DNA of 64,000 bases from Candidatus Eisenbacteria bacterium. GTDB lineage: Bacteria > Eisenbacteria > RBG-16-71-46 > JAFGJU01. Each line of letters begins with the position of its first letter. Position 1 is the first letter of the stretch. Shown here piece after piece: positions 4,685-51,487 of the stretch. The DNA lies in the NCBI GenBank assembly GCA_026388185.1, contig JAPLKG010000003.1, forward strand, positions 62,001 to 126,000. The letters run 5' to 3'. The position numbers and the translations under genes were made by a program. Under the pieces are notes generated by a model. That model did no database searches, was not told where the DNA came from, and saw only the letters and a list, made by a program, of their open reading frames with translations.

Positions 4685-6139
4685 CTAGAACCAGCGCGAT
4701 ATGATGACCCGTTTGTCTGTGAAAAACTCTATGGAATCGCGTCCGTGCGCCTTGAGATCTCCGAAGAACGAACCCTTCGATCCGCCGAACGTAAAGAACG
4801 CCATCGGAGCGGCGATGCCGATGTTTATCCCGATCATGCTTATTCCAACGTTGTACGCGAATTTTCTCGCGTGACCGCCATTCTGCGTGAATATGGAGGT
4901 CGCGTTTCCAAACTCCGACCGAGAGATCATATCGAGGGCTTCCTGGAGCGATTTGGCCCGCATGAGGCACACAACCGGTCCAAAGATCTCTTCCTTCGCG
5001 ATCGACATGGAGGGAGTGACTTTCTCAAACACGGTCGGCCCGACAAAGTAACCCTTGGGACAATCCGCGACCTTGCATCCCCTGCCGTCAAGAAGAAGCT
5101 TTGCGCCTTCGCGCACCGCAGAGTCAATGTGGGCCACGATCTTGTCTCTGTGCTTCTTCGAGATGACGGGGCCCATCGTCGTCTTCTCGTCGAGTCCGTT
5201 CCCCACGACGATCTTTCGTGCCGCCCGGAGAAACTTCTCTTTGAAGGCTTCATACACGTCTCCGACAGCCACTATGAGACTCCCGGCCAGGCAACGTTCT
5301 CCGGCGCATCCGAAACAGGAATCAATGAGTGTCGCGACGGTATTGTCAAGGTCGGCATCGGGCATCACGACGAGAAAATTCTTTGCCCCACCGAGCGCCT
5401 GGACGCGCTTGCCGTGTAGAGAAGCGGTAGAATAGACGTAGCGAGCCACGGGGCTCGACCCCACGAAGGAGATGCCGCACACATCCGGATGTTCAAGAAG
5501 CGCATCGACCGCCTCCTTCGCTCCGTTCACGAGGTTCACCACTCCCGGCGGAAAGCCGACGTCGTGCATGAGCTCGAAGATGCGGTTCTGACAAAGCGGG
5601 GTCTGCTCCGACGGCTTCACGACGAACGTGTTGCCGCAGGCCATGGCGTAAGGAAAGAACCAGAGGGGCACCATTGCGGGAAAATTGAAGGGCGTCACGC
5701 AAGCGAACACGCCGAGAGGCTGCCGCATGGCCACGCAGTCGATATCCTTGGCAATATCTTCCAGGCTGTAGCCCATCATGAGAGACGGAATCCCCGCGGC
5801 GACTTCGACGTTCTCGATTGCCCTGCGCACGCTGCCACGCGCTTCCGGCAGGGTTTTTCCGTTTTCTTTCACAAGAAGCCGCGAGATGTCCTCGAAGTTC
5901 TCTTCGAATAGGTTCTTGAACTTGAAAAAGTAACGGGCACGAACCAGGGGCGGAGTCTCTCTCCACTGCGAAAACGCTTTCCGGGCAAGAGAGACGGCTT
6001 TGTTGACCTCTTCCCGCGTCGAGAGAGGAACGCGCGCAATAATCTCGTCCGTGGCCGGATTTCTTACGTCGAGCGCCTTCGTGGACTTTGAGCTGACCCA
6101 CTTTCCTCCGACGTAGTTGCGAATGGTTTCGATTGGCAT
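4685..6139 (-). CDS. mmsA: CoA-acylating (methyl)malonate-semialdehyde dehydrogenase
   Basis: A 484-aa aldehyde dehydrogenase from MPIETIRNYVGGKWV. That start has AAGAGGT just upstream, whereas an ATG 39 codons earlier (6256) falls at the predicted transcription start. The catalytic cysteine is in SCFGCAGERCLA. The usual general-base glutamate motif is replaced by LGGAKN, which marks the CoA-dependent MMSDH subfamily. TPFNFPAMVPLWFFPYAMA is also typical of that group. In this operon it would convert malonate semialdehyde to acetyl-CoA, or methylmalonate semialdehyde to propionyl-CoA. It is the first gene of the five-gene minus-strand operon. Confidence 0.88.
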   Translation of the reverse strand: MPIETIRNYVGGKWVSSKSTKALDVRNPATDEIIARVPLSTREEVNKAVSLARKAFSQWRETPPLVRARYFFKFKNLFEENFEDISRLLVKENGKTLPEARGSVRRAIENVEVAAGIPSLMMGYSLEDIAKDIDCVAMRQPLGVFACVTPFNFPAMVPLWFFPYAMACGNTFVVKPSEQTPLCQNRIFELMHDVGFPPGVVNLVNGAKEAVDALLEHPDVCGISFVGSSPVARYVYSTASLHGKRVQALGGAKNFLVVMPDADLDNTVATLIDSCFGCAGERCLAGSLIVAVGDVYEAFKEKFLRAARKIVVGNGLDEKTTMGPVISKKHRDKIVAHIDSAVREGAKLLLDGRGCKVADCPKGYFVGPTVFEKVTPSMSIAKEEIFGPVVCLMRAKSLQEALDMISRSEFGNATSIFTQNGGHARKFAYNVGISMIGINIGIAAPMAFFTFGGSKGSFFGDLKAHGRDSIEFFTDKRVIISRWF

Positions 6140-6842: not shown

Positions 6843-8039
6843 ATGAAGGGAAGAACCTTGGTGACGGGGATTCTGGGGTTGGCCCTGCTGCTATTTTCTT
6901 TTCCGGCGTCGGCGCAGCCAATGGCCGACTATGGGGATGCGCCTGATCCGGCGTTCCCGTCGCTCTTCGCCAGCAGCGGCCCCCGGCACACGAATGTAGG
7001 GGATTGCTTTGTTGGGTGGACGTCAACAACGGAGCCAAACGCCCTGATTCCGGACCTGGACGCCGATGACGGCGCCCCGCTGATATTCGCAAACTACACA
7101 CCCTCGGGCTGGACGGCGTGGGTCTACGTGCCGATCACGATCGCCCAAGGCGCTCAGGCGAAGCCCCGTTACTTGAACGTCCTTCTTGACGCGAATTCCA
7201 GCGGAAGCTGGTGCGACGTACCTGGAGAGTGGATTGTCCGCAATTTCCCACTTCCGACAACATACTACTATGTCCACTTTCCCGGGCAAACGGTGTGGTA
7301 CTGCATAGGCGGCTACACCGGCGTGGCTAACTACAGTGGCATGCACTGGCTGCGTGTCACGCTCAGTGACGCGATGGTCACCCCCGATCTCCCGATGATG
7401 GGATGGAGTGGGCGCGTCTCGAGCAGTTTCCTAATCGGTGAGACCGAGGACTGGCTGCTTCAGTGGTACTACAATCCTCCTAAACCACCGGACCCACCCA
7501 ATCCTCCGCCCAACACGGGCATACCGCCACTCCCGGCACCGGTTCCTGAATGCAACAAGACGGGCGCCGTTTACCAGTCGCCCCCTCCGACGCACGTCGG
7601 GCACTCGGGGACTTTCGACATCGTCGTCGAGAACTCGAGCGTCAACCATCCGATGCACATAGTTGAGGGGCCGTTCGCGACTGACGTCAACGGGAGTCCG
7701 ATTGATATCGGTCTGGAGAGTCTAGAAAGCACTTACCTGAACCCGGGACAAAAGGCCACCTCCCACGGGAGCTGGGATTTCGATAACCCGGGTTCTAACC
7801 AGGCATGGTGCAACTGGGACGTCGTGGTCGACCCACAGGGACAGTACATTGTCGTCGCTAACGTGGGCGATTACGTTGACGCCACCGGCAATCAGCCGAC
7901 CGGCGGCAGCTTCCAGGAATCAACACCCACCAAGGTTCCCCTGACGACTCGGACAGGGCTTGTCGTGCTTCTCGTTACGCTCGGCCTGGTTTCCGCTTAT
8001 TTCATCGTGAGGAGGCGTGCCCTCGCGTCAGGAAAATAG
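6843..8039 (+). CDS. Secreted GEVED-domain surface protein with C-terminal membrane anchor
   Basis: A 398-aa protein starting at MKGRTLVTGILGLALLLFSF, which has GGAGG at 6831-6835. An ATG at 6822 has no such site. A signal peptide ending ASA is followed by DYGDAPDPAFPSL and ARHTNVGD-like sequence, and later GETEDW. This DYGDAPD...GEVED pair typifies GEVED-domain proteins of surface or adhesive type. A Pro-rich linker (NPPKPPDPPNPPPNTGIPPL) separates a beta-rich module. The C-terminus, VPLTTRTGLVVLLVTLGLVS then RRR, resembles an IPTL/PEP-CTERM sorting anchor. Function is unknown. A perfect terminator follows, so the gene is probably monocistronic. Confidence 0.75.
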   Translation: MKGRTLVTGILGLALLLFSFPASAQPMADYGDAPDPAFPSLFASSGPRHTNVGDCFVGWTSTTEPNALIPDLDADDGAPLIFANYTPSGWTAWVYVPITIAQGAQAKPRYLNVLLDANSSGSWCDVPGEWIVRNFPLPTTYYYVHFPGQTVWYCIGGYTGVANYSGMHWLRVTLSDAMVTPDLPMMGWSGRVSSSFLIGETEDWLLQWYYNPPKPPDPPNPPPNTGIPPLPAPVPECNKTGAVYQSPPPTHVGHSGTFDIVVENSSVNHPMHIVEGPFATDVNGSPIDIGLESLESTYLNPGQKATSHGSWDFDNPGSNQAWCNWDVVVDPQGQYIVVANVGDYVDATGNQPTGGSFQESTPTKVPLTTRTGLVVLLVTLGLVSAYFIVRRRALASGK

Positions 8040-8161: not shown

Positions 8162-9493
8162 ATGTGGTTTCAGTATCGAAGCGTGAATCGCTCCCGGAAC
8201 GACGGGACCCTCTACGAGTCGATAGTCTCACCGATCAACCTCCGTGAGGGCCAAACGAGAGTTCAGTTGAATCGCCATAGCGGTGCCGCCACAAGCGACC
8301 GCCCGACGGCCTTCGGCCAAAACCAACCTGGATTGTCATTCACGCTTGGCTCCCTGCTGTGCGTCCTTCTGCTGGCGGCGCTCTCCGTTCCTCGAGATGC
8401 CGTATGCGGACTGGCATGGTCTGAGGCCGAGGTCGTGAACAAAGACGTGATGGCGGCTTTCGCGACTCCGAACAATGCCCGTTCGATCGAGGTCGATGCA
8501 GCGGGCGCGGCCCACATCGTTTTCTCCGGAAACATAGACTTTTACTACAACATTTTCTACAGACAACGCAGCCGCTCGGGCTGGGGAAGACTTGAGCAGG
8601 TAAACGTAAGCGCCTCCACGTCCACCACGCCCACCTTGGCAATCGGGCCCGGAGACGCTGTCTACGTGGTATGGTCCGACAATGTGACCGGAAACGGCGA
8701 CCTCTACTTCTCCGCTCGTCTCGGCGGCAGGTGGACAATCCCCGAGAACTTGACCGCCGATTCGACTTCTTCTCTCTTCCCCGCTCTCTGCCGAGTCGGA
8801 GGCGGAAGACTTCACTTGGTTTGGGAGGACAGGCTGGGAGAATCGTCAAGAATCCTCTATTCTTCTCGATTCGGCTCGGAGTGGACTCTCCCCGTTTGCC
8901 TGAGCCATGCGGGACGCGGCGCGACCTCACCCGCAATAGACGTTTCGCCTGACGGAACTATTCATTGTGTCTGGACCGAAGAGGCGAAGGGAAAGAAAGA
9001 AATAGTCTACAGAGAGTTCTCAAAGAGATCTTGGAAGAAGTCCGTGCGATTGAGCGAGCCGTCGAGCTCTGCCAATAGACCCTCTCTGGCCGCAGACAAG
9101 GACGGCGGAGTCCACGTCGTCTGGGAAGACCACAGATTTCGCTTGCCCGCAATCTGCTACAGGGAAAGGAGTGCGAAACACTGGCAACAGGACGTTCTTC
9201 TCACGGACGGAAGCTCCAAGGCGTTTAGACCCGCAATCGCAACGGGACCGCGCTCGACTCTTTGTGTCGTGTGGTATGATAGTAAGTGGGGCGCCACCGA
9301 CGCGGTCTACCAGAGCAGAAAAGATAGAACCTGGAGTCAACCCTTCAGGCTATCCTGCTCCCCGGCTCCCACTTATTTCGCCTCGGTAGCTGCGGGCGAC
9401 GACGGCTGCGTGCACGCGATCTTTCAGGATCGACAGAGAGGCAACTACGACGTGTATTACAGGAAGGCCGTGCCGGCAACACAAGCTGAGTGA
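8162..9493 (+). CDS. Exported seven-repeat beta-propeller (BNR/sialidase-like fold) protein
   Basis: A frame of 443 codons. A hydrophobic signal segment (FTLGSLLCVLLLAALSV) lies about 60 residues in, so the true start is uncertain. GTG at 8183 or a TTG further in are possible, because a promoter overlaps the first ATG. After the signal come about seven repeats of the form hHhVWxDxRxGxxDIxYR, for example GVHVVWEDHRFRLPAICYR and CVHAIFQDRQRGNYDVYYR. This is the pattern of BNR/Asp-box-like propellers that report or bind glycans or act as scaffolds. I see no catalytic sialidase Arg triad, so an enzymatic role is not claimed. It is followed 21 bases later by a P-loop protein. Confidence 0.65.
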   Translation: MWFQYRSVNRSRNDGTLYESIVSPINLREGQTRVQLNRHSGAATSDRPTAFGQNQPGLSFTLGSLLCVLLLAALSVPRDAVCGLAWSEAEVVNKDVMAAFATPNNARSIEVDAAGAAHIVFSGNIDFYYNIFYRQRSRSGWGRLEQVNVSASTSTTPTLAIGPGDAVYVVWSDNVTGNGDLYFSARLGGRWTIPENLTADSTSSLFPALCRVGGGRLHLVWEDRLGESSRILYSSRFGSEWTLPVCLSHAGRGATSPAIDVSPDGTIHCVWTEEAKGKKEIVYREFSKRSWKKSVRLSEPSSSANRPSLAADKDGGVHVVWEDHRFRLPAICYRERSAKHWQQDVLLTDGSSKAFRPAIATGPRSTLCVVWYDSKWGATDAVYQSRKDRTWSQPFRLSCSPAPTYFASVAAGDDGCVHAIFQDRQRGNYDVYYRKAVPATQAE

Positions 9494-9514
9494 TTTCCAC
9501 CAGGGAGGAAGAAG

Positions 9515-10237
9515 ATGCAAGAGACATTTGAAGTGATCATCCTCGTAGGAAGACCCGCTGCCGGAAAAAGCGAGATCATCGACTACTTGAAGAAGGAAAG
9601 CGTTGAGAGGAGGAAAGAGCGTTTCAGAATCGGAACGTTCGAGGAGATAGACGATTTCCCATTTGTGTGGGAGACTTTCGAGATTGACGACATCCTCTCG
9701 AAACACGGACGCGAGCGTATCTTCACGACGCCCGACTATTACTTCAAGGACCCCTTTACTTGGAATCTATTCATCGAGAGAATAAACCTCGAGTTCGCGA
9801 AGAGACTCGCAGGGAATCCGAACTATCTGAGAGACACGACCTCGATAGTCGAGTTTGCTCGCGGAGGAGAAAACGGCTTCGGAGAGGCGTTCTCTCTTCT
9901 TTCCGACGAGATACTCACGCGCGCTGGGGTCGTGTACATAAACGTCTCCTACGAAGAATCCTGCCGCAAGAACAGACGCAGATTCGACCGGAAACAAGCC
10001 CACAGCATCCTCTTTCACTCCCTACCCGACGAGAAGATGGAGTTTTACTACAAGATGAATGACTGGCACAAGATCGCCCCGGGCAATGATGGGTACCTCA
10101 CGATCAGGGGACAGGCCGTTCCCTTCTCTGTGTTCAACAACGAACCAGAGGTAACCGACAAGCCTGAGGAACTTGGCCGGGCATTGGAAGACGTCTTTGG
10201 AAAACTCTGGACGAGGCTGCAAGAAAGGCATCGGTGA
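9515..10237 (+). CDS. P-loop nucleotide kinase-like protein of unknown substrate
   Basis: A 240-aa cytoplasmic protein. IILVGRPAAGKSEIIDYLKK at residues 9-28 is a clear Walker A of the adenylate-kinase/APS-kinase type. The start has GGGAGG nine bases upstream. Later stretches such as VVYINVSYEESCRKNRRRFD resemble the LID/Arg-rich region that precedes a second phosphate-binding set. I do not recognise a named family. It may share the transcript of the propeller gene (21-base gap). Convergent transcription with the next membrane gene leaves only 27 bases between stops. Confidence 0.65.
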   Translation: MQETFEVIILVGRPAAGKSEIIDYLKKESVERRKERFRIGTFEEIDDFPFVWETFEIDDILSKHGRERIFTTPDYYFKDPFTWNLFIERINLEFAKRLAGNPNYLRDTTSIVEFARGGENGFGEAFSLLSDEILTRAGVVYINVSYEESCRKNRRRFDRKQAHSILFHSLPDEKMEFYYKMNDWHKIAPGNDGYLTIRGQAVPFSVFNNEPEVTDKPEELGRALEDVFGKLWTRLQERHR

Positions 10238-46154: not shown

Positions 46155-47300
46155 TCAGGATGAACGAGCAAGAGGTTCAGCGCCAGCCTTTCCTAACGAA
46201 GACATAATCTCGACTGCCGCGGCAAGCACGGTCGTCTCTGCCAGCTCCTCCATCTTGGAACCGGGGGCGGTGAGCGCTCTCACTCGGTCTGTGCGCGGTG
46301 CCCAGCGAAGGGGATCGGTGGGTCCGAAAAGCGCGAGCGTGGGACAACCTACGGCCGCAGCAACGTGAAGGACCCCGGTGTCATTGCAGATGAATAGCGA
46401 GAGTCTCTTAATGAGGGCGGCGACTCTGCCGATGCTCTCGCCGGTTAGGACTGCGGGAACAAATTCCAGCTCCTTCAGCATGGCGTCAACCAGCTCTGAA
46501 TCGGACGGACCTCCTATCACGACTATCTGAGCTCCCTGGTCTGTGTGCAGTGCCTTCGCGACGCCGGCAAACCTCGAAGCCGGCCACCGATTATTCGTCT
46601 TCCCTGCTCCCGGATGGACGCCGACAATGACCACCCGGCCTCCCGGGCGAAGCGAACGTTCTAACATAAACTTGACCGCGAACTTTTCGTCCTCTTCGGT
46701 CGGCACCATTATCGGAGAGAGGTCCGCCGTCGTCACTCCAAAACGTTCGAGGAGCCTGAGGCCGAGCTTCGTCTGGTGCTCGCCTTCATCACCAAGCGGA
46801 ACCGTGACGTGAAACGCTCTGTCAACAAACGCCAGGCCGTAGCTCTCGCCGCTGTAGCTGACCCTGTATCGAGCCGAGCTGGCGAGGCAGAGCAGAGAAC
46901 TCGTGACGGAGAAAGAAACAGTCGAGAGCACGACGCAGATGTCGAAATCCCTCCTCCGGAGGGCACGGATGAATCTGATTAGGGCGAGGGGACTTTTTCT
47001 GAAGGCCCTCTTATCGTAGACAAGGACTTCGTCCACGTGTGGATTGTTGCGCACGACGGCCTCGTTCTCACGGCTAGCGAGAAGCGTCAGCCGGCTCTTG
47101 GGCAGGCTCTGCCTCAGCGCTCTCAGGCAGGGAGTGGCAAGAAGCATGTCACCCATCTGATTCTGTTGGCGAACGACGAGTATCCTTGCGTTTGGACCGC
47201 AGAGTTCAAAGGGGTTCTCACTGATGGTGTGAGTCTTCAATAATCTGAAGAAGAGCGCAGCCAAAGTCAGCCTGAGTCTTCTGGATGGTCTGCTTCCCAA
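46155..47300 (-). CDS. GT9-family (heptosyltransferase-like) glycosyltransferase
   Basis: 381 aa. ILVVRQQNQMGDMLLATPCL is the N-terminal GT9 start (R-x-x-x-x-GD-x-L-x-x-P). IVGVHPGAGKTNNRWPASRF and FICNDTGVLHVAAAVGCPTL are the ADP-sugar-binding motifs of WaaF/WaaC-type enzymes, with FGPTDPLRWAP after. The first 40 residues are more basic and hydrophobic than usual. It likely adds a heptose or similar sugar to the lipopolysaccharide core. It is separated from the glycan locus by about 7 kb, and a weak promoter-like pair lies at 47459-47487. Confidence 0.88.
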   Translation of the reverse strand: MGSRPSRRLRLTLAALFFRLLKTHTISENPFELCGPNARILVVRQQNQMGDMLLATPCLRALRQSLPKSRLTLLASRENEAVVRNNPHVDEVLVYDKRAFRKSPLALIRFIRALRRRDFDICVVLSTVSFSVTSSLLCLASSARYRVSYSGESYGLAFVDRAFHVTVPLGDEGEHQTKLGLRLLERFGVTTADLSPIMVPTEEDEKFAVKFMLERSLRPGGRVVIVGVHPGAGKTNNRWPASRFAGVAKALHTDQGAQIVVIGGPSDSELVDAMLKELEFVPAVLTGESIGRVAALIKRLSLFICNDTGVLHVAAAVGCPTLALFGPTDPLRWAPRTDRVRALTAPGSKMEELAETTVLAAAVEIMSSLGKAGAEPLARSS

Positions 47301-47595
47301 CGGCCTGCTTCCCCACGCTCCATTTCACGATGGTTCACGGCGATGCCCGAGACACATCGGCACGCCTCGGTTCCCACTTTCCTCACCGGCTCCCCGTTGC
47401 ACCAGACATCGCTCGCGACGTGATTCGGCGCTTTCCCACGGCGACGGGGGCCTTTTTTACCGTAACGGACGCTATTGCCGTTGTCAAGCCGGCGTCTCGT
47501 TGGCTACCAGTGATCGGAGCGGCGCCCGGGCAACCAAGCCAACAGGGGCAGGTGTCGGGTGATTACCATCACTGCACACGGGCACGACTCCCGGC

Positions 47596-47784
47596 TTACC
47601 CCTGCACAATCCAGCCTCGCCCGGTCTCCTCTCCATCACCCATCGCAACCGCCACAATCGCACACGCGATCCAGTCCGACAACTTATTCGTCTCCCTCGC
47701 ACGCTCACACCACAGATTGACACCCGCCGACACGCAAGCGGGTACCACCAACGACAGCAGCACAACAACAATCAGCTTCTTCAC
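47596..47784 (-). CDS. Small exported protein of the triplicated cassette (unit C)
   Basis: 62 aa, GTG start with AAAGGAGG six to seven bases upstream, 16 bases after the stop of the large partner. A signal peptide ends at CVSA (MKKLIVVVLLSLVVPACVSA), leaving about 42 residues with WCERARETNKLSDWIACAIV. The matching protein of unit A has ACEYAAETGKLADWLWCGMI in the same place, with Cys and Trp conserved. No known family recognised. Confidence 0.65.
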   Translation of the reverse strand: MKKLIVVVLLSLVVPACVSAGVNLWCERARETNKLSDWIACAIVAVAMGDGEETGRGWIVQG

Positions 47785-47800
47785 GGCAACTCACCTCCTT

Positions 47801-48370
47801 TCACCTGGTCTCTCGGTAGGTAGTGTCCTCGATCGCCCCGACCACCTCGAACTCAACTATGTCCTCCATCCGAAAACTACCCTCAGCAAACTTAACCACA
47901 CCGCACGGCCGCCCTGCGTCCTCCTTACTCCAAACCGACTTTCTCGTCACGACCACCGGCTTCTTCCTCGCGTCATACACCTCCGTCTGCATCAGGTCGG
48001 GCGTGAACAAACATGCCTCACTCTCGTAGCGCTTCCCGCCCTTGTCGATCAACACAATCCTAGTGCTCTTGGTGAACACTACCTTTTCAACCGCACCAAA
48101 CTTTATCGAGAAACCCAACCACACACCCGGCTCAGCAACCATAACCCCGTACATCTTCGCAGCCTCTACCCCAGCCGGTATCTTCGACAGCACATCAGCA
48201 AGCCTAACCAGGCGCCACGCCTTAAACTCAGAATACATCTCCCATCCACCACCGCCAGCCATCCACACCACCGCACCCTTCTCCCCCACACGGAAACCAC
48301 CATCACCACACGGCGCCCACAACACCATTAGGCAAACAACGATCAACACCGCTCCCATCGCTCTCCTCAT
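47801..48370 (-). CDS. Secreted protein of unknown family, cassette unit C
   Basis: 189 aa with a signal peptide (AMGAVLIVVCLMVLWAPCG). The body has a pattern shared with the copies at 48884-49462 and 49859-50425: VEKVVFTKSTRIVLIDKGGK, ESEACLFTPDLMQTEVYDAR, and FAEGSFRMEDIVEFEVVGAI. The conserved core ends in DTTYRETR. No motif of a known enzyme is visible; a beta-rich secreted domain is likely. It is followed by its small partner. Confidence 0.65.
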   Translation of the reverse strand: MRRAMGAVLIVVCLMVLWAPCGDGGFRVGEKGAVVWMAGGGGWEMYSEFKAWRLVRLADVLSKIPAGVEAAKMYGVMVAEPGVWLGFSIKFGAVEKVVFTKSTRIVLIDKGGKRYESEACLFTPDLMQTEVYDARKKPVVVTRKSVWSKEDAGRPCGVVKFAEGSFRMEDIVEFEVVGAIEDTTYRETR

Positions 48371-48687
48371 CTCGCACTACTCCCTCCAACCCCGGTCCGA
48401 TCAACAACACCCTTGAACATGTGGGCTCCACCGCTCGAGATGACATCTGGATCCTAGCACTCGCAACCTGTGACCTGGTCGCACCAATCTTCTTGTATCG
48501 CACAACTCGTGCCAGGACGCAACTAATGTTGTGATATTGCCGCGATCCCTACCTACTCGCCCGTCAACGAGTTATGTGACCGAGTAAATGCCCGCACTCA
48601 TCGCGACCCACGCCCGCCCACTCAGTTTTGCGACCAAAGTCACCAGTCAGCGTGGGAGAGGTACAACTCTGTGAAACGCAACGCAGT
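48371..48687. other. Upstream region of unit C
   Basis: About 320 bases without a gene. The 25 bases at 48386-48410 match 50442-50467 upstream of unit A with one indel, so a piece of the shared upstream element is kept; the 108-bp element of units A and B is not found here. Confidence 0.5.
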
Positions 48688-48858
48688 TCAGTGGGTACGA
48701 GATAGCCACGTTCTTGGCGACCTGGGTAACAGATTTTTGTCTTCTCTGATCTTGTTCCAAACAGAAGGGCGCGTTTGGCGAGAACCAAGCGCGCCCTGTT
48801 TGTTCGGATTCTGTCCCTCTCTTCTCTCGAAAAGGCCGGCCACCACAGCACGCTTCAT
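48688..48858 (-). pseudogene. Remnant of the small partner gene in unit B
   Basis: GGAGGTGGGTTGGC then ATG matches the ribosome site and start of the small genes in units A and C (both AGGTG-G/A-GTT...), and the first few residues (MKRAVVAG) are like theirs. After that the frame reads LFERREGQNPNKQGALGSRQ without a signal peptide or the Cys/Trp block, so the gene appears to be disrupted by a deletion or replacement. Confidence 0.5.
48766..48797. terminator. Strong hairpin after unit B
   Basis: AGGGCGCG (48766-48773) pairs with CGCGCCCT (48790-48797), and the inner bases TTGG/CCAA extend the stem. The sequence past it on the minus strand is TCTGTTTGG, a weak U-tract. Confidence 0.6.
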
Positions 48859-48883
48859 GCCAACCCACCTCCTCTCACTCCAG

Positions 48884-49462
48884 CTACATCCCTCCTCCGT
48901 CCGCGATCGCTCCAACAACCTCAAAACCCACTATGTCACCCAGCTTCACACTCCCCGCCCGGAACTTCACCGCGCCACACGGCCCCCAACGGTCCGACCC
49001 GCACCACACAGCATTACGCGACACAACAACCGGCGACGTCCTCGAGTCATACACGCTCGTCTGCGACCGATCCGGCCAGAAACACACCCCCTCACTCTCA
49101 ACCCTCTTCCCCTCTCTGTCCCTCACAACGATCTTCGTGTTCCTAGTGAACGTCACACTCTTAACATGAACAAGGTCCACTCGAAAAGCCAACCACACAC
49201 CCTCATTCTTCGCTATCTCCTCAAACACCAGCCACCCAACAACCCTGTCCGGCCTCCCCTCAACAGACTTCCGGAGCCTCTCACGATCGAACAGCCGAAA
49301 CCCGATCACCCTCCACGAGCTGTCCGGCGCCGCCCAACTCACTCTCTTCTCATCAGCTCTCCAAGCCTCGACGTCGCCACACGGAACAACAAGCCCCAGG
49401 AACCCACCGACCACAAGAGCAACACCCACACACGCACACAACACAGAACGCGACAGTCCCAT
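48884..49462 (-). CDS. Secreted protein of unknown family, cassette unit B
   Basis: 192 aa from MGLSRSVLCACVGVALVVGG, which has GGAGGGAGGTGG upstream; the longer frame to 49546 runs into the duplicated upstream DNA. It has a signal peptide, then a body with VKSVTFTRNTKIVVRDREGK, ESEGVCFWPDRSQTSVYDSR and FRAGSVKLGDIVGFEVVGAI. Length and blocks match units A and C. The first 30 residues after the signal differ most. Function unknown. Confidence 0.65.
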   Translation of the reverse strand: MGLSRSVLCACVGVALVVGGFLGLVVPCGDVEAWRADEKRVSWAAPDSSWRVIGFRLFDRERLRKSVEGRPDRVVGWLVFEEIAKNEGVWLAFRVDLVHVKSVTFTRNTKIVVRDREGKRVESEGVCFWPDRSQTSVYDSRTSPVVVSRNAVWCGSDRWGPCGAVKFRAGSVKLGDIVGFEVVGAIADGGGM

Positions 49463-49482
49463 CTCGAGCCACCTCCCTCCAG

Positions 49483-49590
49483 CCCCCTGAGAATGCAAGC
49501 CGGCGCGATGAGTGCGCGCGATCGACCACCGCACGCCCATCACCAACTCGACCTTTCAGCGAGCCAAGACGCGCCGGCCACCAATCACAC
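49483..49590. repeat. 108-bp upstream repeat, copy 2
   Basis: By hand, 101 of 108 positions match copy 1 at 50467-50574. It lies just before unit B, in the same position relative to the start codon as copy 1 relative to unit A, so it is probably a duplicated promoter or leader. Confidence 0.9.
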
Positions 49591-49644
49591 GCTGCACCAG
49601 GAAGACTGGCTGACGCCAGTTTTCCTCATGCAACAGCCGCACGG

Positions 49645-49842
49645 TCAATACTGCCAATCAACCGGGATACCGTCACCACTATCCGCCTGAATACAACGCA
49701 CTACGAGGATCATCCCGCACCACAACCAGTCAGCTAACTTTCCGGTCTCCGCAGCATACTCGCACGCCAGCGGCAGCGCCACAGCCACACCAACCGGCAC
49801 CAAAAACGACAGCAGCAGAACCACAAGAATCACCTTTCTCAC
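49645..49842 (-). CDS. Small exported protein of the triplicated cassette (unit A)
   Basis: 65 aa from GTG 49842, with GAGGAGGTGG upstream, 16 bases after the stop of its large partner, the same spacing as in unit C. A signal peptide (VRKVILVVLLLSFLVPVGVA) is followed by ACEYAAETGKLADWLWCGMI and a polar tail (QADSGDGIPVDWQY). The open frame continues upstream to 49935 but lacks a site. Unknown family. Confidence 0.62.
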   Translation of the reverse strand: MRKVILVVLLLSFLVPVGVAVALPLACEYAAETGKLADWLWCGMILVVRCIQADSGDGIPVDWQY

Positions 49843-49858
49843 ACCAACCCACCTCCTC

Positions 49859-50425
49859 TCACTCAGTATCTCGATACGTGCTGTCCCCGACCGCACCCAC
49901 CACCTCAAACTCGACGACGTCCTTAGGACGCACACTGCCCTCAGCGAACTTCGCAGTCCCTAGAGCCGTCGTATCGGCAGCCCGACAGTACACAGAGTGC
50001 ATCGTCACAACCACGCTCATCTTCCGCGTGTCATACACCTGGCTCTGCGCCTCATCCGGACAGAAGAACAACCCCTCACTCTCGTGACGATTCCCCTTCC
50101 TATCCACCACAACGATCTTCGCACCCTTCGTGAACACCACCTTCCGCACACTCCTAAACCCCACACCAAACTTCAGCCACTCACCAGGCTCCTTAACCAT
50201 CAACTCAATCAGCCTAAGCCCCTCCTGACCAGCAGGTCTCTCAGGCATCACCATGGGCAATTTCTCAACAGCCCACCTACCGAAACCACCAACCGCCCAC
50301 CCCTCTCCGGCCGGAACCCACACCTTCGCACCCTTCTCACTCACGTAGAACCTGGCATCACACAACGACACAAGCGACGCCACCACCAACGGCGTCACAA
50401 TCAACATCAGCCCCAGCTTCCTCAT
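49859..50425 (-). CDS. Secreted protein of unknown family, cassette unit A
   Basis: 188 aa with a signal peptide (LGLMLIVTPLVVASLVSLCD). The body repeats the shared blocks: VRKVVFTKGAKIVVVDRKGN, ESEGLFFCPDEAQSQVYDTR and FAEGSVRPKDVVEFEVVGAV, then DSTYRDTE. Units A and C are closest. The chain is moderately basic and beta-rich in appearance. Followed by its small partner after 16 bases. No known family recognised. Confidence 0.65.
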   Translation of the reverse strand: MRKLGLMLIVTPLVVASLVSLCDARFYVSEKGAKVWVPAGEGWAVGGFGRWAVEKLPMVMPERPAGQEGLRLIELMVKEPGEWLKFGVGFRSVRKVVFTKGAKIVVVDRKGNRHESEGLFFCPDEAQSQVYDTRKMSVVVTMHSVYCRAADTTALGTAKFAEGSVRPKDVVEFEVVGAVGDSTYRDTE

Positions 50426-50466
50426 CCCTCACTCCTTCCTACCAACCCCGGTCCGATCAACCAACA

Positions 50467-50574
50467 CCCCCTGAGAATGCAAGCCGGCGCGACGAGCACG
50501 CGCGATCGACCACCGCACGCCCATCACCAACTCGACCTTTCAGCGAGCCAAGACACGCCGGCAACCAGCCACAC
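50467..50574. repeat. 108-bp upstream repeat, copy 1
   Basis: Direct repeat of 49483-49590, 984 bases apart and in the same orientation. It sits immediately upstream of unit A and carries no ORF. Confidence 0.9.
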
Positions 50575-51487
50575 GCAACGCAACAATGCGCCACGAAACA
50601 AGCTGTGCTCCACGAGATCGCGCCAGGCAACAGAACCTCGCCGCAAAAGATCGTGCCGCACGAAGCTCGCACCCTACTCGGTGCGACAATATCACTTATT
50701 TAGAGTACCCCGTAGAACAGATGCTTCCTCAGCAACCGCCACGCGGCTAGCAGAGCCGTTCTCCAGGCACGAGTCACCCACGCCGGGCTCGCGCCGTCCC
50801 ACCACATCAGCACCGGTCACACACCTCCCTAGGCGTCACGCCAAGAGATCGCTTGGATTCACCTGCACAGTGGCCGCGTGCGTCTCCCCGTCTCCTTATC
50901 CCCCTTCCCTCTCTGTCCGCTCCACCTGTTCTGTCGACTGAGCGGGTCAGGGGCGGGGCAGGGTGACCTTAAAGAGCGGCGACGATGGAGGTCTTGGGAC
51001 GGTAAACTCGGAAGTCCCTCGTGTGCGCATCATCCGTGCTCTCTTACCGCAATCGCTCTGGTTGCAGTTGCGGGGTCACCCTTTGAACCCCGGTTGCTGT
51101 GGAACACCAACCGCTGTCAAGCACTTCAAAACTGTCTTCAATGCAGAAAATGACCTCGTTTGATCTGCCGAGCATATTATTGCACATACGCAAATACTTG
51201 TCAATAGGAAAGTGCCGCGCCCCGTGTCGCCTTCGCGTGCGGCCGGTTTTGCCCACTCGGCTGACGACGCGAATGAGCGCAATGGCTAAAACCAACGCCT
51301 CGGGCAAGCCCGCGGTGTCTCCGCTGAACCCACAGCACGCCACCGAGCCGACTACGCCCTTGCCGACGCCGACACCGCCTGCAAATGACTCCAGTCGGCA
51401 CGGCCAACTGTTGCCGAAACTCGTCATTAGCGATACAATCCCATCGACCGCATCGTGCCGGGAGCGTCTCGTCCGTGGGGAGTAACC
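50575..51487. other. Long intergenic region
   Basis: About 900 bases between unit A and the methyltransferase pair. Several open frames exist but lack ribosome-binding sites and familiar motifs. A GTGATATTG-type sequence near 50684-50692 (minus strand) is echoed on the plus strand at 48531-48539. No RNA gene was recognised. Confidence 0.5.

What the first reader, a model, noticed from the sequence alone, without database searches (positions are those of the whole stretch)
47596..50425. Triplicated cassette of unknown secreted proteins with small partners
Three paralogs of 188-192 aa (units A, B, C) share the blocks VVFTK-KIVV-DR-G, ESEG-F-PD-Q-VYD-R and FAEGS--DIVEFEVVGA. In units A and C a 62-65 aa exported protein with a conserved Cys/Trp block follows after exactly 16 bases; in unit B it is disrupted. 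Repeated cassettes with variable copies suggest a diversified surface, toxin/immunity or stress system. No known family was recognised.
Basis: partly seen in the sequence, partly recalled or inferred. Interest (0 to 1): 0.75.

Follow-up and report, generated by a model that had tools for sequence, protein, structure and literature searches.

The report
Exported protein-plus-tiny-peptide gene pairs
An uncultured bacterium carries six diversified copies of an undescribed exported protein of about 190 residues, usually with an exported mini-protein of about 65 residues encoded right behind it; the same pair recurs, mostly single-copy, throughout a second bacterial phylum, so it is a real conserved system that matches no named family and whose job is still unknown.

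Summary
Three minus-strand genes (189, 192, 188 aa) lie where stated. In A and C an exported 62-65 aa gene follows after exactly 16 bases; in B only its ribosome site, start and about eight codons remain. But it is not a triplet: the genome has six large and four small genes on three contigs. In the phylum the pair is rare (3 of 47 genomes). A profile search reached a second phylum where the large gene is in 17 of 20 genomes; in all 17 an overlapping 48-53 aa exported gene follows, ending in a near-invariant W-x(6)-W-x2-GGWHG[FYM] peptide under purifying selection. No family in Pfam, NCBIfam, PHROGs or PADLOC and no PDB sequence matches. The AlphaFold model of the large protein is mostly beta-strand, well scored, without a firm structural match. 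Copies in this genome are mosaics: the upstream DNA (and signal peptide) of one copy joined to the mature domain of another. Best reading: two exported, translationally coupled products that act together in the envelope, the large one a beta-sandwich that binds or handles the small peptide. Whether the peptide is a fixed subunit, a released signal or an antagonistic peptide is not shown.

The parts
47801..48370 (-). large gene A, 189 aa, signal peptide then mostly-beta domain
   Evidence: profile matches
47596..47784 (-). small gene A, 62 aa, signal peptide, two Cys, GTG start 16 nt after large A
48884..49462 (-). large gene B, 192 aa, premature TAG three codons before the ancestral stop position
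48688..48858 (-). remnant of small gene B: ribosome site, ATG and about eight codons kept, rest unrelated sequence without signal peptide
   Evidence: no small match here
48766..48797 (.). 13-bp hairpin (terminator-like) inside the B remnant
   Evidence: as many terminator-like sites as expected by chance in the region, so weak
49859..50425 (-). large gene C, 188 aa; groups with the single copy of the sister genus G001
49645..49842 (-). small gene C, 65 aa, signal peptide, C-x14-C, GTG start 16 nt after large C; 30 of 64 residues identical to the G001 small protein
49483..49592 (.). 110-bp repeat just upstream of large B (94% identical to 50467-50576)
50467..50576 (.). 110-bp repeat just upstream of large C
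48380..48776 (.). upstream region of large A, 83% identical to the upstream region of the copy on contig C8
49598..49627 (.). inverted repeat after small C, kept after the C8 small gene; possible terminator
   Evidence: read by eye

Best explanation
The cassettes encode a two-part exported system. The large gene makes a mostly-beta (beta-sandwich-like) protein and the small gene, translated in coupling with it, makes a short helical peptide of about 25-45 residues after signal cleavage (one probable disulfide in this lineage, a Trp-rich GGWHG[FY] end in the other phylum). Both leave the cytoplasm by the Sec route and act together in the periplasm or outside, most likely with the small peptide docking on the large protein. 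SHOWN: reading frames, pairing, homology across two phyla, purifying selection on the small frame in the second phylum, mosaic paralogues. INFERRED: export (signal peptides judged by eye), coupling, disulfide, physical binding. NOT KNOWN: the process served. In this genome the pair was multiplied to six large copies and reshuffled, upstream/signal part against mature part, which suggests that different mature variants are useful.
For: Pair in four intact copies of this genome with the same 16-nt spacer; pairs in G001 and two in G003 with overlapping stop/start. Large family in 17 of 20 genomes of another phylum; a profile of the window-phylum proteins alone finds the other-phylum proteins (G143 at E 1e-7, 14 of 16 below 0.005 at Z=100000) and no shuffled or reversed control. 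All 17 genomes have the small gene overlapping the large gene's end. Small frame outside the overlap: pN/pS 0.46, third codon positions least conserved. Large model pLDDT 82, pTM 0.76. Mosaics: A and C8 share upstream DNA and signal peptide (72% aa) but only 22% in the first half of the mature protein, while C8's mature part groups with B (100/96 support).
Against: The small-protein model is poor (pLDDT 66, pTM 0.36). Two large genes here (B and C10 unit 1) and the second copies in the other phylum lack an adjacent small gene, so the large protein can exist without its own partner. The small proteins of the two phyla share position, signal peptide and length class; their profile match covers only the signal peptide, so homology of the peptides is not shown.
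Confidence: 0.45

Rival explanations
1. Secreted-peptide system: the small peptide is the active product (signal or antagonistic peptide), exported by Sec, oxidised where it has Cys, then moved out of the periplasm by a MacAB-type pump; the large protein is its periplasmic chaperone, carrier or neutraliser.
For: A MacA/ATPase/MacB set lies upstream on the same strand in six of the 17 other-phylum loci, within about 0.3 kb in three of them, and MacA plus a MacB-like permease lie about 2-4 kb from the C10 copies here. MacB family substrates include small disulfide-bonded peptides: STII goes Sec, Dsb, then MacAB-TolC, and the Bacillus SDP peptide (42 aa, one disulfide) is countered by the MacB-like YknXYZ (PMC5985334).
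Against: In the other 11 loci no MacAB was found in the stretch examined, nor at C3, C8, G001 or G003. The mature peptides are acidic (net -2 to -7), unlike most membrane-killing peptides. In the other phylum the peptide is single-copy and conserved across genera. How often MacAB lies by chance near a gene in these genomes was not measured.
Confidence: 0.25
2. Toxin/immunity or contact-antagonism family: copies diversify to escape or match partners; orphan large genes are leftover immunity genes.
For: Multi-copy, mosaic, rapidly diverging mature domains (pN/pS about 0.5-0.85); orphan copies.
Against: No PADLOC, PHROG or Pfam toxin or immunity match; not on phages or plasmids; single-copy conservation in the other phylum.
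Confidence: 0.12
3. Only the large protein matters (a housekeeping or stress-linked envelope protein); the small frame is a regulatory or accessory peptide without direct contact.
For: Large genes exist without small ones (B, C10 unit 1, L139-L141). In the other phylum an Rrf2-type regulator lies near in 13 of 17 loci and hybrid cluster protein in 7, a setting known for nitric-oxide/redox stress control (own knowledge).
Against: Small frame kept in all 17 main loci with amino-acid level selection and a conserved C-terminal motif.
Confidence: 0.13

Closest known systems
MPT63-like and other small secreted beta-sandwich proteins (1lmi, 5bxg)
   Same: Exported, small, mostly beta; best structural rows (Z 4.7 and 4.6)
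   Different: Scores lie in the range of unrelated common arrangements; sequence identity 5-6%; no paired mini-protein known to me
MacAB-TolC exported peptides (STII) and SDP/YknXYZ
   Same: Short Sec-exported peptide, disulfide in the window lineage, MacAB-type genes near some copies (PMC5985334)
   Different: MacAB not near most copies; a large paired exported protein with no counterpart that I know of; no toxicity shown
T4 Spackle (PF25676, phrog_1586)
   Same: Small periplasmic protein with signal peptide; one G003 small protein scores 19.3 bits
   Different: Match is residues 1-39, largely the signal peptide, below the 27-bit cut-off and in one of seven members only

Membership tests
Any curated Pfam or NCBIfam family | score above the family's curated cut-off | tested here: not met
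   25 large members: best E 0.043 in Pfam and 0.023 in NCBIfam, each in one member; small proteins: none above cut-off
MPT63-like / other secreted beta-sandwich families | same fold with significant structural score | tested here: inconclusive
   Foldseek none at E<=0.001; VIA-align best Z 4.7, 3.6 A over 103 residues
Known anti-phage defence systems (PADLOC) | profile match of a system protein | tested here: not met
   no match at E<=0.1 for the five window proteins
T4 Spackle | profile match over the mature domain above cut-off | tested here: not met
   19.3 bits against a 27-bit cut-off, N-terminal residues only
MacAB-exported disulfide peptide systems | peptide gene beside a MacA/MacB transporter | tested here: inconclusive
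   six of 17 other-phylum loci and contig C10 here; not at C3, C8, G001 or G003
MacAB-exported disulfide peptide systems | transport of the peptide by MacAB | not testable with these tools
   needs an experiment
Toxin-antitoxin / effector-immunity pairs | one product toxic, the other protective | not testable with these tools
   no sequence match to known toxins

The most novel reading that the evidence does not exclude
A so far unnamed two-gene envelope or secretion system, shared by two phyla, in which a dedicated beta-sandwich protein carries or controls a co-translated secreted mini-peptide (GGWHG[FY] type in one phylum, disulfide type in the other), and which in this lineage has been expanded and reshuffled into a set of variants.
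Probability: 0.45. Interest if true: 0.7.

Novelty: new variant of a known kind. Interest (0 to 1): 0.5.

Why it matters
Exported mini-proteins under 60 residues are routinely missed by gene callers, and more so when, as in the second phylum, they overlap the gene before them. This pair gives two sequence profiles, a clear C-terminal motif and a ready set of loci in two phyla, so that a whole unnamed class of exported peptide with a dedicated partner becomes searchable and testable. The six reshuffled copies in one genome are a natural experiment in how such pairs diversify.

Tried and rejected
T4 Spackle relation of the small protein: signal-peptide-driven, one member only. Known fold for the large protein: Foldseek PDB and viral, and VIA-align, gave nothing firm. 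PDB sequence search: only chance-level hits, T-cell receptor and cupin. Phage, plasmid and viral-contig origin: no match. Rfam: nothing. Sigma-54 control of all copies: a good -24/-12-like site lies 144 nt upstream of A and 141 nt upstream of C8, but not upstream of B, C or C10, and such sites occur elsewhere in the window, so not a shared feature. Homology of the two small-protein groups over the mature part: not shown. First genome-contig scan with the three window proteins found nothing; the other phylum was reached only with the nine-sequence profile in whole genomes. 28 named relatives from several phyla had no match. Two attempts to search with the nine-sequence alignment failed because no stretch was conserved enough. 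Literature searches for such pairs returned nothing.

Full report
OBSERVATION. All are on the minus strand. The 16-nt spacer is exact in A and C and also in the two other intact pairs of the genome. In unit B the ribosome site, the spacer and the ATG at 48858 survive, but the small reading frame is lost after about eight codons; the large gene B also ends three codons early relative to an in-frame TGA at the position where its paralogues stop (my reading of the printed sequence).

NOT A TRIPLET. A profile of the three proteins finds six large genes in the 2.6-Mb genome: three here (contig C3), one on C8, two in tandem on C10. A profile of the small proteins finds four: behind A, behind C, on C8 and behind the second C10 gene. 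The first C10 large gene is followed directly by the second, with no small gene between them.

WHERE IT OCCURS. In the window's own phylum (47 genomes held) only two other genomes have it: G001 of the same family, with one pair, and G003 of another family, with two pairs and an orphan small gene. In G001 and G003 the small gene overlaps or abuts the large stop codon. The orphan in G003 lies beside an IS21-type ATPase gene and beside purM and a sigma-54-type regulator gene, the same two genes that flank the C8 copy here, so that place is old.

A SECOND PHYLUM. With nine sequences the profile reached one genome, G143, outside the phylum (E 3e-8 for one genome of 385 searched; hhalign 95% probability). 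In the phylum of G143, 17 of 20 genomes have the large gene. As that search included G143 itself, I checked with a model of the window-phylum proteins alone: 14 of 16 other-phylum proteins score below E 0.005 at Z=100000, and no shuffled or reversed copy scores at all. In all 17 genomes a small gene starts inside the 3' part of the large gene, in another frame, or overlaps its stop codon. Its product is 48-53 aa: a signal peptide, then about 25 residues with an amphipathic helix and the end W-x(6)-W-x2-GGWHG[FYM] with few exceptions. Outside the overlap the small frame shows pN/pS 0.46 and least identity at third positions, so it is a translated gene. Second copies of the large gene in that phylum (L139-L141) lack it.

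WHAT THE PROTEINS ARE. No Pfam, NCBIfam, PHROGs, PADLOC or PDB-sequence match worth the name. AlphaFold gives the large protein a confident mostly-beta fold (pLDDT 82, pTM 0.76). The best structural rows are small secreted or immunoglobulin-like beta-sandwiches (MPT63 Z 4.7), in the range of chance arrangements. The small protein model is poor and not used.

HOW THE COPIES EVOLVED. By mature protein the copies form three pairs: C with G001, A with C10 unit 1 (96/96), B with C8 (100/96). Upstream DNA tells another story. The 400 nt before A and before C8 are about 83% identical, and so is the signal-peptide part (72% aa), yet the first half of the mature protein is 22% identical. B and C share a 110-bp repeat at 94% just upstream, while their coding regions agree at little more than half of their positions and synonymous sites are near saturation. 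Neutral divergence cannot be 6-17% on one side and saturated on the other without recombination or strong constraint upstream; recombination between copies is the simpler reading, but no formal test was run.

NEIGHBOURS. In the second phylum an Rrf2-type regulator lies near 13 of 17 loci, hybrid cluster protein near 7, and a MacA/ATPase/MacB set upstream on the same strand in 6, three of them within about 0.3 kb. MacA and a MacB-like permease also lie 2-4 kb from the C10 copies here. Several contigs are short, the genomes are related, and no background rate was measured, so this is a lead only. It matters because MacAB-TolC moves Sec-exported, disulfide-bonded small peptides out of the periplasm, and the MacB-like YknXYZ deals with a 42-aa one-disulfide peptide (PMC5985334).

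MECHANISM, GRADED. Shown: genes, pairing, conservation, selection on the small frame, mosaic copies. Inferred from sequence: export by signal peptide, translational coupling, a disulfide in the window lineage. Proposed: the large protein binds the small peptide outside the cytoplasm. Open: whether the peptide is a fixed subunit, a released signal or an antagonistic peptide.

Noticed in passing
L009 (G000:C10) 9239-9562, minus strand: 107-aa exported ORF made largely of RIDDIGF repeats (EEGRIDDIGF...SRIDDIGFSS...EGRIDDIGFARPRIDDIGFAS), beside the C10 cassettes; looks like a repeat peptide precursor.
   Followed up: no
window 47285-48331, 48671-49690 and 49997-50941, plus strand: Long antisense ORFs (348, 339, 314 aa) opposite each large gene, probably a by-product of codon composition.
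   Followed up: no
L097 (G003:C66) 4772-4981 and 5068-5655, minus strand: Small gene without its large gene, directly after an IS21-type istB; purM and a sigma-54 regulator gene adjacent as at G000:C8.
   Followed up: partly
window 48499-48514, minus strand, and L008 about 7673-7688: Sigma-54-like site TGGCACG-N4-GTGCG 144 nt upstream of large A and 141 nt upstream of the C8 copy, beside a sigma-54 regulator gene in C8.
   Followed up: partly
L139 and L140: A second, divergent large protein without small gene near phosphate-uptake type genes (PstB-like, response regulator) in the other phylum.
   Followed up: no
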